Below, piece by piece: positions 2,822 to 5,710 of a stretch of 5,710 nt of DNA. This DNA comes from DAOVGU01 sp030637775 [NCBI: bacterium] (GTDB taxonomy: Bacteria; Ratteibacteria; UBA8468). Position 1 is the first letter of the stretch; each line of letters starts with the position of its first letter. The notes under the pieces were generated by a model. The model ran no database searches. It saw nothing but the letters and a program-made list of their open reading frames with translations, and was not told where the DNA came from. The position numbers and the translations under genes are program-made. The stretch covers positions 1-5,710 of the forward strand of contig DAOWFY010000015.1 in assembly GCA_030637775.1 (NCBI GenBank), in the 5' to 3' direction.

Positions 2822-2830
2822 TGATATAAT
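2822..2830 (+). promoter_or_regulatory. Putative extended -10 promoter for the zinc-ribbon gene
   Basis: TGATATAAT (TG at 2822-2823, TATAAT at 2825-2830) is a perfect extended -10 element in the 24-bp gap after the D-2-hydroxyacid dehydrogenase. No good -35 sits at 17 bp; TTGATG at 2799-2804 would need a 20-bp spacer. Extended -10 promoters can work without a -35. Transcription would start near 2837, about three bases before the ATG at 2840, giving an almost leaderless mRNA. This fits the poor Shine-Dalgarno there (AAGGA at 2834-2838, one base from the ATG). Not proven by sequence alone. Confidence 0.45.
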
Positions 2831-2839
2831 AAAAAGGAA

Positions 2840-3169
2840 ATGAGCGTAATTCTGAAAGGAGAACTTTATTGTCTTCATTGTCATCAGGAAACTCCTCACA
2901 CTTTAATCTATGCGGGTCATCCTTTATCCGGCGAGTCTTACTTAAAGAAGATTAAATGTGAGGATTGTGAAACAGTAATTGAGCTGGATAGAATCAAAAT
3001 TCTGGAACTCTATGGCAAGCAGTTGGTAAAGAGGGTTCTTACCAAGCCGATACGCTTGACTAAAGAAATAAGAGCTGACCTTACCAACTTCATCAAGTCC
3101 CTGCCGATAAGAATTATCACCAAACCCTACCGTGCCGCTAAAGAAGTCTTGGAAATTATCAAGGAATAA
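2840..3169 (+). CDS. Small conserved zinc-ribbon protein, function unknown ('bh protein'-like)
   Basis: A 109-residue soluble, basic protein with no signal peptide or membrane segment. The N-terminal half has two CxxC knuckles (Cys11/Cys14 and Cys40/Cys43) with nearby His13, His15 and His20, as in a zinc ribbon. The C-terminal half carries an internal repeat with a 26-residue period: RVLTKPIRLTKEI (65-77) and RIITKPYRAAKEV (91-103) share 7 of 13 residues, with most other positions conservative. From memory it resembles small proteins labelled 'bh protein' in clostridia and related anaerobes; I cannot confirm this and know no established function. The ATG at 2840 is the only ATG between the upstream in-frame stop (2822-2824) and the first CxxC. 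Its Shine-Dalgarno is too close, while an extended -10 lies just upstream. Its stop touches the ATG of the next dehydrogenase, so the two are probably translated together. Possible roles such as nucleic-acid binding or regulation are speculation. Confidence 0.8.
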   Translation: MSVILKGELYCLHCHQETPHTLIYAGHPLSGESYLKKIKCEDCETVIELDRIKILELYGKQLVKRVLTKPIRLTKEIRADLTNFIKSLPIRIITKPYRAAKEVLEIIKE

Positions 3170-4195
3170 ATGAAAGCGGCGGTCTACCATTGTCCTGAAA
3201 AGGTAAGATTAGAAGAAGTCCCCCTTCCCAGGATTAAAGAGGAAGAGGTGTTGGTAAGGGTGAAAGTAGCACTCACCTGTGGGACGGACAGGAAACTATA
3301 TCTTCGCGGTCATCCTCTTTTCCCTCCTCCTTTCATTCTCGGACATGAATTTGCTGGAGATATTGCAAAAATAGGTAAAGGAGTAAAAAAATTCAAAAAA
3401 GGGATGAGGGTCGTGGCAGCAAATTCTGCCCCTTGCCATCATTGTTTCTACTGTAAGTTAGGAAAAGAGGAACTCTGTGAAAATTTTTTTATCAGGTTAA
3501 GTGGGGCCTTTGCCGAATATATTGCCATACCAGAACCGATTGTAAGGGATAATCTCTTTGAGATTCCGAAAGATATTACCTATCAAGAAGCAGTCTTCTT
3601 GGAGCCTCTGGCCTGTGTTATCCACGGCATAGAAGAATCACAAATAAAATTGGGTGATACGGTGGTAATTAATGGAGCCGGTCCTATCGGGCTTTTATTT
3701 TTACAATTGGCAAAATTGCAGGGAGCCCGTGTAATCATTACAGATTTATCAAAGGGAAGACTCTCTTTAGCCAGCAAATTGGGTGCAGATAAGGTCTTGA
3801 ATGTGACTCAAGTGAAGGATGAGGTTAAAGCGGTAAGGGAATTGACTGAAGGGAAAAGAGGAGCAGACATAGCGATCGAGGCGGTAGGAAGCCCGGAAGT
3901 GTGGGAAAAAACAATCGCCATGGTAAGAAGGGGAGGTTTGGTAAACCTCTTTGGAGGCTGTAGCCCAAAGACCTTGATTAAGATTCCTACAAATCTGCTC
4001 CATTACAATGAGGTTACCATTAAGGGAGTTTTTCACCATACGCCAGATTATGTAAGAAAAGCCTTTGCCCTTATCTGCGACAAGAGCATCAATACCGAGA
4101 GCCTAATTACTCAACAATTTCCTCTTCAGAAGATTAAAAAAGTCTTAGAGTTAACAACTGCACAGGAAGGTTTGAAGTTTGCTATAATTCCTTAG
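3170..4195 (+). CDS. Zinc-dependent medium-chain alcohol/polyol dehydrogenase (copy 1)
   Basis: A 341-residue member of the zinc-containing medium-chain dehydrogenase family (sorbitol/threonine dehydrogenase-like), which oxidises secondary alcohols or polyols with NAD(P) in the cytosol. Catalytic zinc ligands are Cys37 (CGTD), His59 and Glu60 (GHE) and probably Glu145 (LEPLAC). All four structural zinc cysteines are present: 89, 92, 95 and 103. The nucleotide fold shows GAGPIG (169-174), with Asp192 after the second strand (VIITD), so NAD is the likely cofactor. Length is typical. The ATG at 3170 directly follows the TAA of the zinc-ribbon gene; AAGGA at 3161-3165 gives a four-base spacing, slightly short but usable. 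The next gene is another, clearly different, dehydrogenase of equal length. The family is certain. The substrate could be a sugar alcohol, inositol-type compound or hydroxy acid, and cannot be chosen from sequence. Confidence 0.93.
   Translation: MKAAVYHCPEKVRLEEVPLPRIKEEEVLVRVKVALTCGTDRKLYLRGHPLFPPPFILGHEFAGDIAKIGKGVKKFKKGMRVVAANSAPCHHCFYCKLGKEELCENFFIRLSGAFAEYIAIPEPIVRDNLFEIPKDITYQEAVFLEPLACVIHGIEESQIKLGDTVVINGAGPIGLLFLQLAKLQGARVIITDLSKGRLSLASKLGADKVLNVTQVKDEVKAVRELTEGKRGADIAIEAVGSPEVWEKTIAMVRRGGLVNLFGGCSPKTLIKIPTNLLHYNEVTIKGVFHHTPDYVRKAFALICDKSINTESLITQQFPLQKIKKVLELTTAQEGLKFAIIP
4180..4188 (+). promoter_or_regulatory. Putative extended -10 promoter before the second dehydrogenase
   Basis: TGCTATAAT (TG at 4180-4181, TATAAT at 4183-4188) is a perfect extended -10 element inside the last codons of the first dehydrogenase. 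Seven bases separate it from the ATG at 4196, so a transcript would start at or next to the ATG and be leaderless. No Shine-Dalgarno lies at usable spacing (the nearest, AGGAAGG at 4164-4170, is 25 bases away). No -35 was found at 16-18 bp. The site is coding (codons for FAII), so chance is possible; the same arrangement before the ATG at 2840 raises its credibility. Confidence 0.38.
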
Positions 4196-5221
4196 ATGAT
4201 AGCTTTGGTTAAACTTTCCCATAAGAAGGATGACTTTGAATTGATGGAAGTGCCAGAGCCTATTCCTGAAGCAGATCAGATTAAGGTAAAGGTAAAAAAA
4301 ACCGGAATCTGCGGGACCGATATCTATGGTTATCAAGCGGTTAAAGCACCTGTTATTTTGGGCCATGAGACCTCTGGAGTTGTGGTAGCAAAAGGCAAAA
4401 ATGTTAAGGGAATCCAGATCGGAGAGCGGGTTACCACTGAGACGACCGTCTCTATCTGTGGGAAGTGCAGGTTTTGTCAGACTAAAGACTATAATCTGTG
4501 TTCTAATAGGAAAGGCTTGGGCTCTGCTGCCAATGGTGCCTTTGCCGAATATTTCTCTATTCGCAAGGAGAGTATCCATAAACTTCCGTCCAATGTGGAC
4601 TTTGCCGCAGGTTCCCTCTGCGAGCCTCTTGCTTGTGCTGTCCATGCGGTAGCCGAGCAGGCAAAGGTTTCCTCCGGGGAAATTGTTCTAATTTTTGGTC
4701 CGGGACCCTTTGGTCTTTTGGTCGCTCAGGTGGTCAACTCTTTGGGAGCGAAAGTCATTATCTGTGGAAAAGAAGGAGATGAAAAGCGGTTAAGATTGGC
4801 AAAACTTTTAGGGGCAGAAGTTGTCGTTAACCTAAAGAAAGGAGGAATTGAAGAAAGGATAAGGGAATTAACCTCTGGCGATGGTGCAGATGTGATCTTT
4901 GAGTGCTCGGGGACGCCATCGGCCCTTCATCTCGGATTAAAATTGATAAGGAAAAAAGGAAGGTATGTGCAGGCAGGAATCTTGAGAGAGCCTGTGAAAG
5001 TAAACTTTGAACAAATCCTTTTTGCCAGAGAAGTTGTACTCCTTGGTTCTCATACCCAGAAACCTTCCTCCTGGAAGAAAGCTCTGAACTTACTGTCTGA
5101 AGGCAAAGTCAATCTCAAAGCTCTAATAACCGATGAATTGCCCCTTTCTCATTGGAGAGAAGGCTTCCGAAAAGCAAAGGAAAGAGACTCGGTCAAGGTG
5201 CTCCTTTACCCTCCTAATTAA
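4196..5221 (+). CDS. Zinc-dependent medium-chain alcohol/polyol dehydrogenase (copy 2)
   Basis: A 341-residue zinc dehydrogenase, related to its upstream neighbour but well diverged. Catalytic zinc ligands are Cys39 (GICGTD), His57 and Glu58 (GHE) and probably Glu143 (CEPLAC). Structural zinc cysteines are 88, 91, 94 and 102. The nucleotide-binding turn is GPGPFG (168-173). After the second strand it reads VIICGKEG (187-194), with Gly191-Lys192 where copy 1 has Thr191-Asp192; loss of the acidic residue hints at NADP or relaxed cofactor use, an inference. It resembles the sorbitol/threonine dehydrogenase-like branch. The ATG at 4196 directly follows the TAG stop of copy 1 in the same frame, with no Shine-Dalgarno at normal distance; initiation may depend on translational coupling or on the leaderless-type promoter at 4180-4188. 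It is the last gene of the run; the next promoter begins 10 bp after its stop. Confidence 0.93.
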   Translation: MIALVKLSHKKDDFELMEVPEPIPEADQIKVKVKKTGICGTDIYGYQAVKAPVILGHETSGVVVAKGKNVKGIQIGERVTTETTVSICGKCRFCQTKDYNLCSNRKGLGSAANGAFAEYFSIRKESIHKLPSNVDFAAGSLCEPLACAVHAVAEQAKVSSGEIVLIFGPGPFGLLVAQVVNSLGAKVIICGKEGDEKRLRLAKLLGAEVVVNLKKGGIEERIRELTSGDGADVIFECSGTPSALHLGLKLIRKKGRYVQAGILREPVKVNFEQILFAREVVLLGSHTQKPSSWKKALNLLSEGKVNLKALITDELPLSHWREGFRKAKERDSVKVLLYPPN

Positions 5222-5230
5222 ACTCTATTT

Positions 5231-5259
5231 TTGACAATTATTTCTTTTTAAATTATAAT
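5231..5259 (+). promoter_or_regulatory. Consensus sigma-70 promoter for the tRNA-Thr/tuf unit
   Basis: TTGACA at 5231-5236 and TATAAT at 5254-5259 are both perfect consensus hexamers with the ideal 17-bp spacer, in an AT-rich setting. Transcription should start near 5266, about 134 bases before the tRNA. A promoter this strong fits a stable RNA and elongation factor Tu, among the most expressed bacterial genes. No GC-rich discriminator typical of stringent control is evident right after the -10 (AAAAGATTC follows). Confidence 0.88.
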
Positions 5260-5471: not shown

Positions 5472-5487
5472 GACAGCATAGCTGTCA
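5471..5487 (+). other. Hairpin at the tRNA 3' trailer
   Basis: TGACAGC (5471-5477) and GCTGTCA (5481-5487) form a perfect seven-pair stem with an ATA loop, starting at the tRNA discriminator base and running into the left end of the downstream repeat. Its position suggests possible influence on 3'-end processing of the tRNA, but it may simply be an outer part of the repeat. Confidence 0.5.
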
Positions 5488-5562
5488 TTGCGAGGAGCAA
5501 AGCGACGAAGCAATCCCTCACTTCTTTGAAATGAGAGATTCCTCGTTCCACTCGGAATGACA
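5483..5562. repeat. Interspersed inverted repeat between tRNA-Thr and tuf
   Basis: An 80-bp imperfect palindrome. The ends TGTCATTGCGAG (5483-5494) and CTCGGAATGACA (5551-5562) are inverted copies with one mismatch. The centre folds as AATCCCTCA (5512-5520) with TGAGAGATT (5532-5540, one mismatch), continuing to TTC/GAA around a TTT loop. The bases between (GAGCAAAGCGACGAAGC, then CCTCGTTCCA) pair poorly. The ends and the GCGACGAAGCAAT core match, from memory, a dispersed palindromic repeat scattered through intergenic regions of many unrelated bacterial genomes, which often yields spurious predicted peptides. The open frame across it on the minus strand (5463-5657) also runs through part of the tRNA and the start of tuf and is not a gene. 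It is expected in the tRNA-tuf transcript, where it would fold into a long stem. Confidence 0.75.
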
Positions 5563-5588
5563 TGTTGTGTCAAATAAGGAGAGAAAAA

Positions 5589-5710
5589 ATGGCAAAGGAA
5601 AAATTTGAGATGAAAACACGACATGTTAACGTGGGGACAATTGGTCACGTAGACCATGGCAAGACCACCCTTACTTCTGCAATCACCCTTATTCTCTCCA
5701 AAGGAAATAA
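5589..5710 (+). CDS. tuf: Elongation factor Tu, 3'-truncated by the window end
   Basis: The first 40 codons of EF-Tu, the GTPase that delivers aminoacyl-tRNA to the ribosome in the cytosol. The visible part has the near-invariant [18 protein letters not shown] (residues 12-29), including the P-loop GHVDHGKT (19-26) that binds GTP. The ATG at 5589 has a strong Shine-Dalgarno AAGGAG at 5576-5581 with seven-base spacing, just outside the inverted repeat. Position after tRNA-Thr fits the common locus in which tRNA-Trp, secE, nusG and ribosomal protein genes often follow; those lie beyond the window. Some 355 residues remain unseen. The identity is secure from the P-loop segment, which separates EF-Tu from other translational GTPases. 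Confidence 0.96.

What the first reader, a model, noticed from the sequence alone, without database searches (positions are those of the whole stretch)
2822..4198. Two SD-less genes each have a perfect extended -10 just before the ATG: candidate leaderless transcripts
TGATATAAT ends 9 bases before the ATG at 2840, and TGCTATAAT ends 7 bases before the ATG at 4196. Neither ATG has a usable Shine-Dalgarno, whereas the genes at 901, 1799 and 5589 have strong ones and lack this element. A -10 at this distance is the known layout of leaderless bacterial genes (described for example in Deinococcus). Two independent hits in the same position suggest a second initiation mode used for internal promoters in this operon. 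The 4180 site is coding sequence, so one hit could be chance.
Basis: partly seen in the sequence, partly recalled or inferred. Interest (0 to 1): 0.62.

Follow-up and report, generated by a model that had tools for sequence, protein, structure and literature searches.

The report
Leaderless promoter, plus a coding look-alike
One of the two promoter-like sites is very probably a real promoter placed so close to a gene that its message starts almost at the first codon, a known bacterial habit that I did not find described for this uncultured lineage, while the other site is most likely just part of the preceding gene's code.

Summary
Site 1 (TGATATAAT 2822-2830, 9 nt before ATG 2840) keeps its spacing in two relatives whose upstream DNA shows no similarity; there it heads a conserved unit (zinc-ribbon-like ORF, ADH, ADH). 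It is best read as an extended -10 giving an RNA with a leader of about 3 nt. Site 2 (TGCTATAAT 4180-4188) is the C-terminal codons of the preceding gene. In both relatives the next start overlaps that gene's stop and the element lies only 3 nt from the start; in one it is also degraded. Translational coupling explains gene 4196. Of these 23 genes, 13 follow an opposite-strand gene, and -35-like hexamers pile up at 17-18 nt. Seven exact cases recur in orthologues. This is a lineage (Candidatus Ratteibacteria and kin) using a known mode, leaderless sigma-70 promoters. No RNA data were available.

The parts
2822..2830 (+). Site 1: extended -10 element TGATATAAT of an inferred leaderless promoter; its first three bases are also the in-frame stop upstream of ORF 2840
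   Evidence: kept as TGATATAAT (L062) and TGATATACT (L061) at the same spacing, with no DNA similarity further upstream
2837..2839 (+). Inferred 3-nt leader (transcription start near 2837, seven bases after the end of the -10)
   Evidence: inference from usual -10 to start-site spacing; no RNA data
2840..3169 (+). 109-aa zinc-ribbon-like protein (CxxC...CxxC), no Pfam or NCBIfam match; start codon ATG 2840
   Evidence: M1 aligns in all four homologues compared; no ATG/GTG/TTG in frame upstream, next one in frame at 3023
3170..4195 (+). Zinc-dependent alcohol dehydrogenase family protein, second gene of the unit; AAGGA 4 nt before its ATG, which follows TAA 3167-3169 directly
4180..4188 (+). 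Site 2: TGCTATAAT, read here as F-A-I-I codons of gene 3170, not a conserved promoter
   Evidence: CGCTATCAT in L061; TGCTATAAT but 3 nt from a GTG start in L062
4193..4198 (+). Stop/start junction TAG-ATG (0 nt); ATGA and GTGA overlaps in the relatives
4196..5221 (+). Second zinc-dependent alcohol dehydrogenase family protein, third gene of the unit

Best explanation
Site 1 is an extended -10 sigma-70 promoter whose transcript begins about 3 nt before ATG 2840, so the zinc-ribbon-like ORF is translated from an essentially leaderless mRNA without a Shine-Dalgarno. The same transcript carries ADH 3170 (AAGGA 4 nt before its ATG, and coupling) and ADH 4196 (stop-start coupling). Site 2 is a coding coincidence. 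In this lineage leaderless promoters of this kind serve a minority of genes, with first genes of transcription units over-represented. Shown by sequence: the element, its spacing, its conservation, and the enrichment with controls. Inferred: the transcription start, the actual use of the leaderless RNA, and coupling at 4196.
For: Site 1 keeps its 9-nt spacing and 8 of 8 or 7 of 8 bases in L062 and L061 (83% and 84% protein identity), although blastn finds no match at E 1e-3 among the three upstream regions: L062 has S11, S4, RpoA and L17 genes there, L061 a tRNA-Gly. Own genome: 27 TGNTATAAT-N5-12-ATG against 6 for the reversed pattern, 18 at 6-10 nt against 7 at 13-17 nt. By reading, 14 of the 27 sit before plausible gene starts, site 2 among them; nine of ten tested have a Pfam family. 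Sample of 549 genes, at least 7/8 at 6-10 nt: SD-less 22 of 339 (decoy mean 2.46, max 9; 0 of 200 decoys reach it), SD 1 of 210. Of the 23, 13 have an opposite-strand gene upstream, against 57 of 526 others (p 3e-7). -35-like hexamers (4/6 or better) at spacers 15-19 in 14 of 23 against 114 of 522 (p 1e-4), with 12 counts at 17-18. Orthologues with the exact element: TopA in three genomes; S15, phosphomannomutase, PAPS reductase, a CbiA-type ATPase, a 406-aa protein and ORF 2840 in two.
Against: No transcript data. Site 1 in the window lacks a -35 at 16-18 nt (nearest TTGATG at 20 nt) and is not in the promoter scan list. The element starts 6 nt, and ATG 2840 24 nt, after the stop of gene 1799, so read-through RNA may also carry ORF 2840. 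A distant homologue (G047, 53% identity) is operon-internal with an SD, so the layout is not inherent to the family. At a looser cut (6/8) the signal is weaker: 44 of 339 against decoy mean 20.4, max 37. The 6-10 against 13-17 nt ratio is 2.46 in the family but also 1.36 in 46 unrelated genomes, so the lineage is not unique. Other spacers also give some -35-like hits (6, 3, 8, 2, 6 of 23 in five control ranges). Start codons were taken as the 5'-most ATG, not proven.
Confidence: 0.78

Rival explanations
1. Both sites are real leaderless promoters and give internal starts within one operon.
For: Both have the exact element at 7-9 nt and no SD. Site 2 also has TGCACA 18 nt upstream, 10 of 12 consensus matches, and the element itself is kept in L062. 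From sampled codon usage the chance that F-A-I spells TTT GCT ATA is only about 4%.
Against: Site 2 is not kept as a leaderless layout in 2 of 2 relatives: the element lies 3 nt from the start in both and is degraded in one, so a transcript from there would start inside the gene. A same-strand gene ending within 15 nt is rare upstream of element-bearing starts (2 of 23, site 2 being one, against 244 of 526).
Confidence: 0.12
2. Neither element is used: genes 2840 and 4196 are translated from read-through of the upstream operon by coupling or non-SD initiation.
For: All these genes are co-directional; the gaps before the two ATGs are 24 nt and 0 nt. The scan finds no more promoter-like sites than shuffles do (12 against 11.5).
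Against: Site 1 is conserved where the upstream genes are different and further away, and the element is enriched genome-wide with spacing and -35 evidence.
Confidence: 0.1
3. The element is an AT-rich translation-initiation feature of SD-less genes, not a promoter.
For: Permuted decoys of the same letters are also commoner before SD-less starts (2.46 of 339 against 0.46 of 210).
Against: In the SD-less class the real motif is about ninefold commoner than decoys; hits carry -35-like hexamers at 17-18 nt and favour unit heads; an exact copy also stands directly before a tRNA-Arg gene (L015).
Confidence: 0.04

Closest known systems
Leaderless genes of Deinococcus-Thermus (-10 motif about 6-7 bp before ORFs; PMC12340547, sections 7 and 11 read, other passages seen)
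   Same: A -10 motif directly before the start codon, no leader expected, alongside SD genes; there reporter and transcript work supports promoter function.
   Different: There about 30% of ORFs on average and TANNNT (most often TACACT in D. radiodurans); here a near-consensus, TG-extended TATAAT before 23 of 549 sampled ATG starts (decoys about 3) and 13 of 70 starts behind an opposite-strand gene. A looser motif was not fitted, so the true share may be higher.
TA-led (leaderless) genes in bacteria surveyed by Zheng et al. 2011 (PMC3160421, abstract and passages seen)
   Same: TA-like signal around 12 bp upstream; in several low-GC genomes a TG peak before it, as here.
   Different: 953 bacterial genomes of 2011; I saw no mention of this lineage in the passages shown.
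Extended -10 (TGnTATAAT) sigma-70 promoters (recalled; a passage says that TG can substitute for the -35 region)
   Same: Same core; site 1 has no -35 at optimal spacing.
   Different: Usually followed by a longer leader (recalled).

Membership tests
Leaderless bacterial gene (ORF 2840) | 5' end of the mRNA at or within about 5 nt of the start codon | not testable with these tools
   No transcript data; predicted start near 2837 from -10 spacing.
Leaderless bacterial gene (ORF 2840) | -10 element 6-10 nt before the start codon | tested here: met
   9 nt, 8 of 8 specified bases; same spacing in two relatives.
Leaderless bacterial gene (ORF 2840) | No usable Shine-Dalgarno | tested here: met
   AGGA one base from ATG only, absent in the two relatives.
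Leaderless bacterial gene (ORF 2840) | Start codon correctly placed | tested here: met
   M1 aligned in four homologues; no ATG/GTG/TTG in frame upstream after the stop at 2822.
Leaderless bacterial gene (ORF 4196) | -10 layout kept in orthologues | tested here: not met
   3 nt from the start in both relatives, element degraded in L061.
Translationally coupled gene (ORF 4196) | Start codon overlapping or abutting the upstream stop codon, in relatives too | tested here: met
   TAG-ATG, ATGA, GTGA; coupling itself untested.
Sigma-70 promoter (the 23 element-bearing genes of the sample) | -35-like hexamer 16-18 nt upstream | tested here: met
   14 of 23 at spacers 15-19, against 2 to 8 of 23 in five control spacer ranges; an excess for the group, not for each gene.
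Sigma-70 promoter (site 1 itself) | -35-like hexamer 16-18 nt upstream, or the TG extension in its place | tested here: inconclusive
   No -35 at 16-18 nt; TG extension present.

The most novel reading that the evidence does not exclude
Candidatus Ratteibacteria and kin routinely start a share of the first genes of transcription units, including housekeeping genes such as topA and rpsO, from leaderless mRNAs made at TG-extended -10 promoters, a second initiation mode kept across genera in a phylum with no cultured member known to me.
Probability: 0.6. Interest if true: 0.45.

Novelty: new member of a known kind. Interest (0 to 1): 0.36.

Why it matters
It extends a known alternative mode of translation initiation, with testable predictions, to an uncultured phylum. 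It also warns gene callers that starts in such genomes may lack an SD, and that a -10-like string before an ATG inside an operon can be mere coding sequence.

Tried and rejected
Rejected: equal standing of the two sites. Rejected: chance for site 1 (conservation). A coding-internal hit (LeuRS-like by reading, TGGTATAAT 6 nt before a Met codon) recurs in G000 and G001, so conservation alone is no proof inside genes. The chance that F-A-I spells TTT GCT ATA, as site 2 needs, is about 4% from sampled codon usage: low, and the element is also kept in L062, so codon choice alone does not settle site 2; the lost layout does most of the work. Pattern ratios across phyla were a weak test: 5-12 against 23-30 nt gave 90 to 48 in the family, 1002 to 840 in the rest of the class, 370 to 346 elsewhere; 6-10 against 13-17 nt gave ratios 2.46, 1.32 and 1.36. 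Folding the first 54 nt of the inferred RNA showed no unusual structure (z 0.65 to 1.01). A hit that I first took for a tRNA promoter (L124) precedes only a tRNA-like fragment that neither ARAGORN nor Rfam reports there. Literature: I found no paper that joins leaderless genes with this lineage. One search asked for either of 'Ratteibacteria' and 'leaderless' (2,399 papers; none of the 15 listed held both); one search found five papers with 'Ratteibacteria', seen as a listing; one with 'Omnitrophota' and 'leaderless', listing only; some searches were listings. Absence from this open-access library is weak evidence.

Full report
What the window is. The window is one whole contig (C38) of a 1.397 Mb, 177-contig draft genome, 83.5% complete (length). 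The two named records that encode a close relative of ORF 2840 are MAG CSMAG_1143 (DAOVGU010000099.1, L061) and Candidatus Ratteibacteria CG_4_9_14_3_um_filter_41_21 (PFWI01000003.1, L062). The genes are the end of a FAD-dependent oxidoreductase, a Gfo/Idh protein, a D-2-hydroxyacid dehydrogenase, a 109-aa protein without a family, two zinc ADHs, tRNA-Thr(GGT), and a gene starting at 5589 that is cut by the contig end; the matching gene in L061 is an EF-Tu-type GTPase.

Observation. Both elements are exact and at the stated distances. Strong SDs stand before 901, 1799 and 5589. AGGA lies one base before ATG 2840 and is not kept in the relatives.

Site 1. Aligned with L061 and L062, the coding part is conserved and the short stretch TGATATAAT (TGATATACT in L061), nine bases and ATG is kept. 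Further upstream blastn finds no match among the three at E 1e-3. Different genes lie there: a tRNA-Gly and other genes in L061, and S11, S4, RpoA and L17 genes in L062. The three-gene unit followed by tRNA-Thr is the same in all three. ATG 2840 is well placed: the frame upstream stops at 2822, the next ATG/GTG/TTG in frame is 3023, and M1 aligns in four homologues. A start seven bases after the -10 gives 5'-GAAAUG (inference). The one homologue outside the family among 61 genomes searched (4 of 61 with a match, own included) is operon-internal with an SD by reading.

Site 2. TGCTATAAT is T-GCT-ATA-AT of the ...F-A-I-I-P end of gene 3170. In L062 it is kept but the next start is GTG, 3 nt away and overlapping the stop (GTGA). 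In L061 it reads CGCTATCAT with an ATGA overlap, again 3 nt away. A promoter there would start RNA inside the next gene. The junction in the window is TAG-ATG with no gap. Coupling is the simpler account. Against this: the spelling is a 4% choice from codon usage, and TGCACA lies 18 nt upstream.

Genome-wide test. TGNTATAAT-N5-12-ATG occurs 27 times in the genome against 6 for the reversed pattern; at 23-30 nt it is 13 against 4. Reading all 27: 14 before plausible gene starts (2840 and 4196 included), one before a tRNA-Arg gene (L015) and one before a tRNA-like fragment that neither tool reports, three inside frames, eight before short or doubtful frames. Pfam on ten of the gene-start proteins names nine: CbiA-type ATPase, phosphomannomutase, topoisomerase, argininosuccinate lyase, PAPS reductase, S15, a nucleotidyltransferase, PilM, TsaE; one 406-aa protein has none.

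Sampling contigs 1-80 (655,069 bases; 652 called frames, 599 with both ends) gave 549 genes with a usable 5'-most ATG. With at least 7 of 8 bases at 6-10 nt, SD-less genes score 22 of 339 (200 permuted decoys: mean 2.46, max 9) and SD genes 1 of 210 (decoy mean 0.46). At 8 of 8 the counts are 5 and 0 (decoys 0.12 and 0.01); at 6 of 8, 44 and 2 (decoys 20.4, max 37, and 6.0). At 13-20, 23-30 and 33-40 nt the 7/8 counts lie within the decoy range; exact matches there in SD genes are 2, 1 and 2 against decoy means of 0.1-0.2, as leadered promoters would give. Position by position there are 23 hits at 6-10 nt, 5 at 11-19 nt and 9 at 20-24 nt. ATG is the main start: first GTG 3 of 307 and first TTG 3 of 415, against 23 of 542 for ATG. 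SD and -10 compete for the same space, which is why decoys were scored in each class.

Context of the 23 element-bearing genes. 13 follow an opposite-strand gene (57 of 526 others; p 3.3e-7), and 2 have a same-strand gene ending within 15 nt (244 of 526), site 2 being one of them. Among 70 starts behind an opposite-strand gene 13 carry the element (decoy mean 0.67, max 4); among 445 behind a same-strand gene 10 do (decoy mean 2.10, max 6). A 4/6 or better match to TTGACA lies at spacers 15-19 in 14 of 23 (114 of 522 others, p 1e-4), with counts of 6 at 17 and 6 at 18; five other spacer ranges give 6, 3, 8, 2 and 6. This was not used to pick the genes and is independent support for promoters.

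Relatives. Exact hits number 25 in G001 and 17 in G003. Seven true-start orthologue groups share the layout: TopA in all three genomes (10, 7, 9 nt), S15 (7, 6), phosphomannomutase (6, 6), PAPS reductase (11, 9), the 406-aa protein (10, 9), the CbiA-type ATPase (10, 10) and ORF 2840 (9, 9). An eighth shared group is coding-internal. Across 81 genomes the exact pattern at 6-10 against 13-17 nt gives 64 to 26 in the family (4 genomes), 686 to 519 in the rest of the class (31) and 585 to 431 elsewhere (46). So the family stands out, but the trend is not confined to it.

Comparison with the known. Leaderless genes with a -10 close to the start are a known bacterial mode. Zheng et al. 2011 (abstract and passages) place TA-like signals around 12 bp upstream and note a TG peak in several low-GC genomes. 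Zhong et al. 2025 (sections 7 and 11, other passages) treat the motif in Deinococcus-Thermus as a promoter with reporter and transcript support and survey other phyla. A review (passages) describes 70S initiation at AUG at or near the 5' end. This case is a new member of that kind. What is new, as far as I found, is the lineage and the measured association with unit heads.

Noticed in passing
window 5231-5259: Perfect TTGACA-17-TATAAT before tRNA-Thr and the gene at 5589; by reading, kept in L061 and, with a weaker -10 (TAATAT), in L062: a leadered promoter that can serve as a yardstick.
   Followed up: partly
window about 5473-5565; L061 about 2550-2630; L062 about 2720-2862: Interspersed repeat-like sequence (GTCATTGCGAGGAG... 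and its reverse), seen by reading near the same gene unit in all three genomes.
   Followed up: no
window 2840-3169; L178 1477-1788: Zinc-ribbon-like protein family without a Pfam or NCBIfam match; in a distant genome it lies between genes read as a dehydrogenase E2 and PTS HPr/EI genes.
   Followed up: partly
L087:5644-6138, L111:2301-3965, L120:4183-5058 (contigs of the own genome): Three of the 23 element-bearing genes encode an aconitase-C, a TPP-enzyme and a class-IV aminotransferase protein, perhaps LeuD, IlvB and IlvE (recalled); a shared regulation of branched-chain amino acid synthesis could be checked.
   Followed up: partly
L124 1949-2100: An exact TGTTATAAT stands before a fragment resembling the 5' half of tRNA-His; an intact tRNA-His lies about 1 kb further on.
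   Followed up: partly
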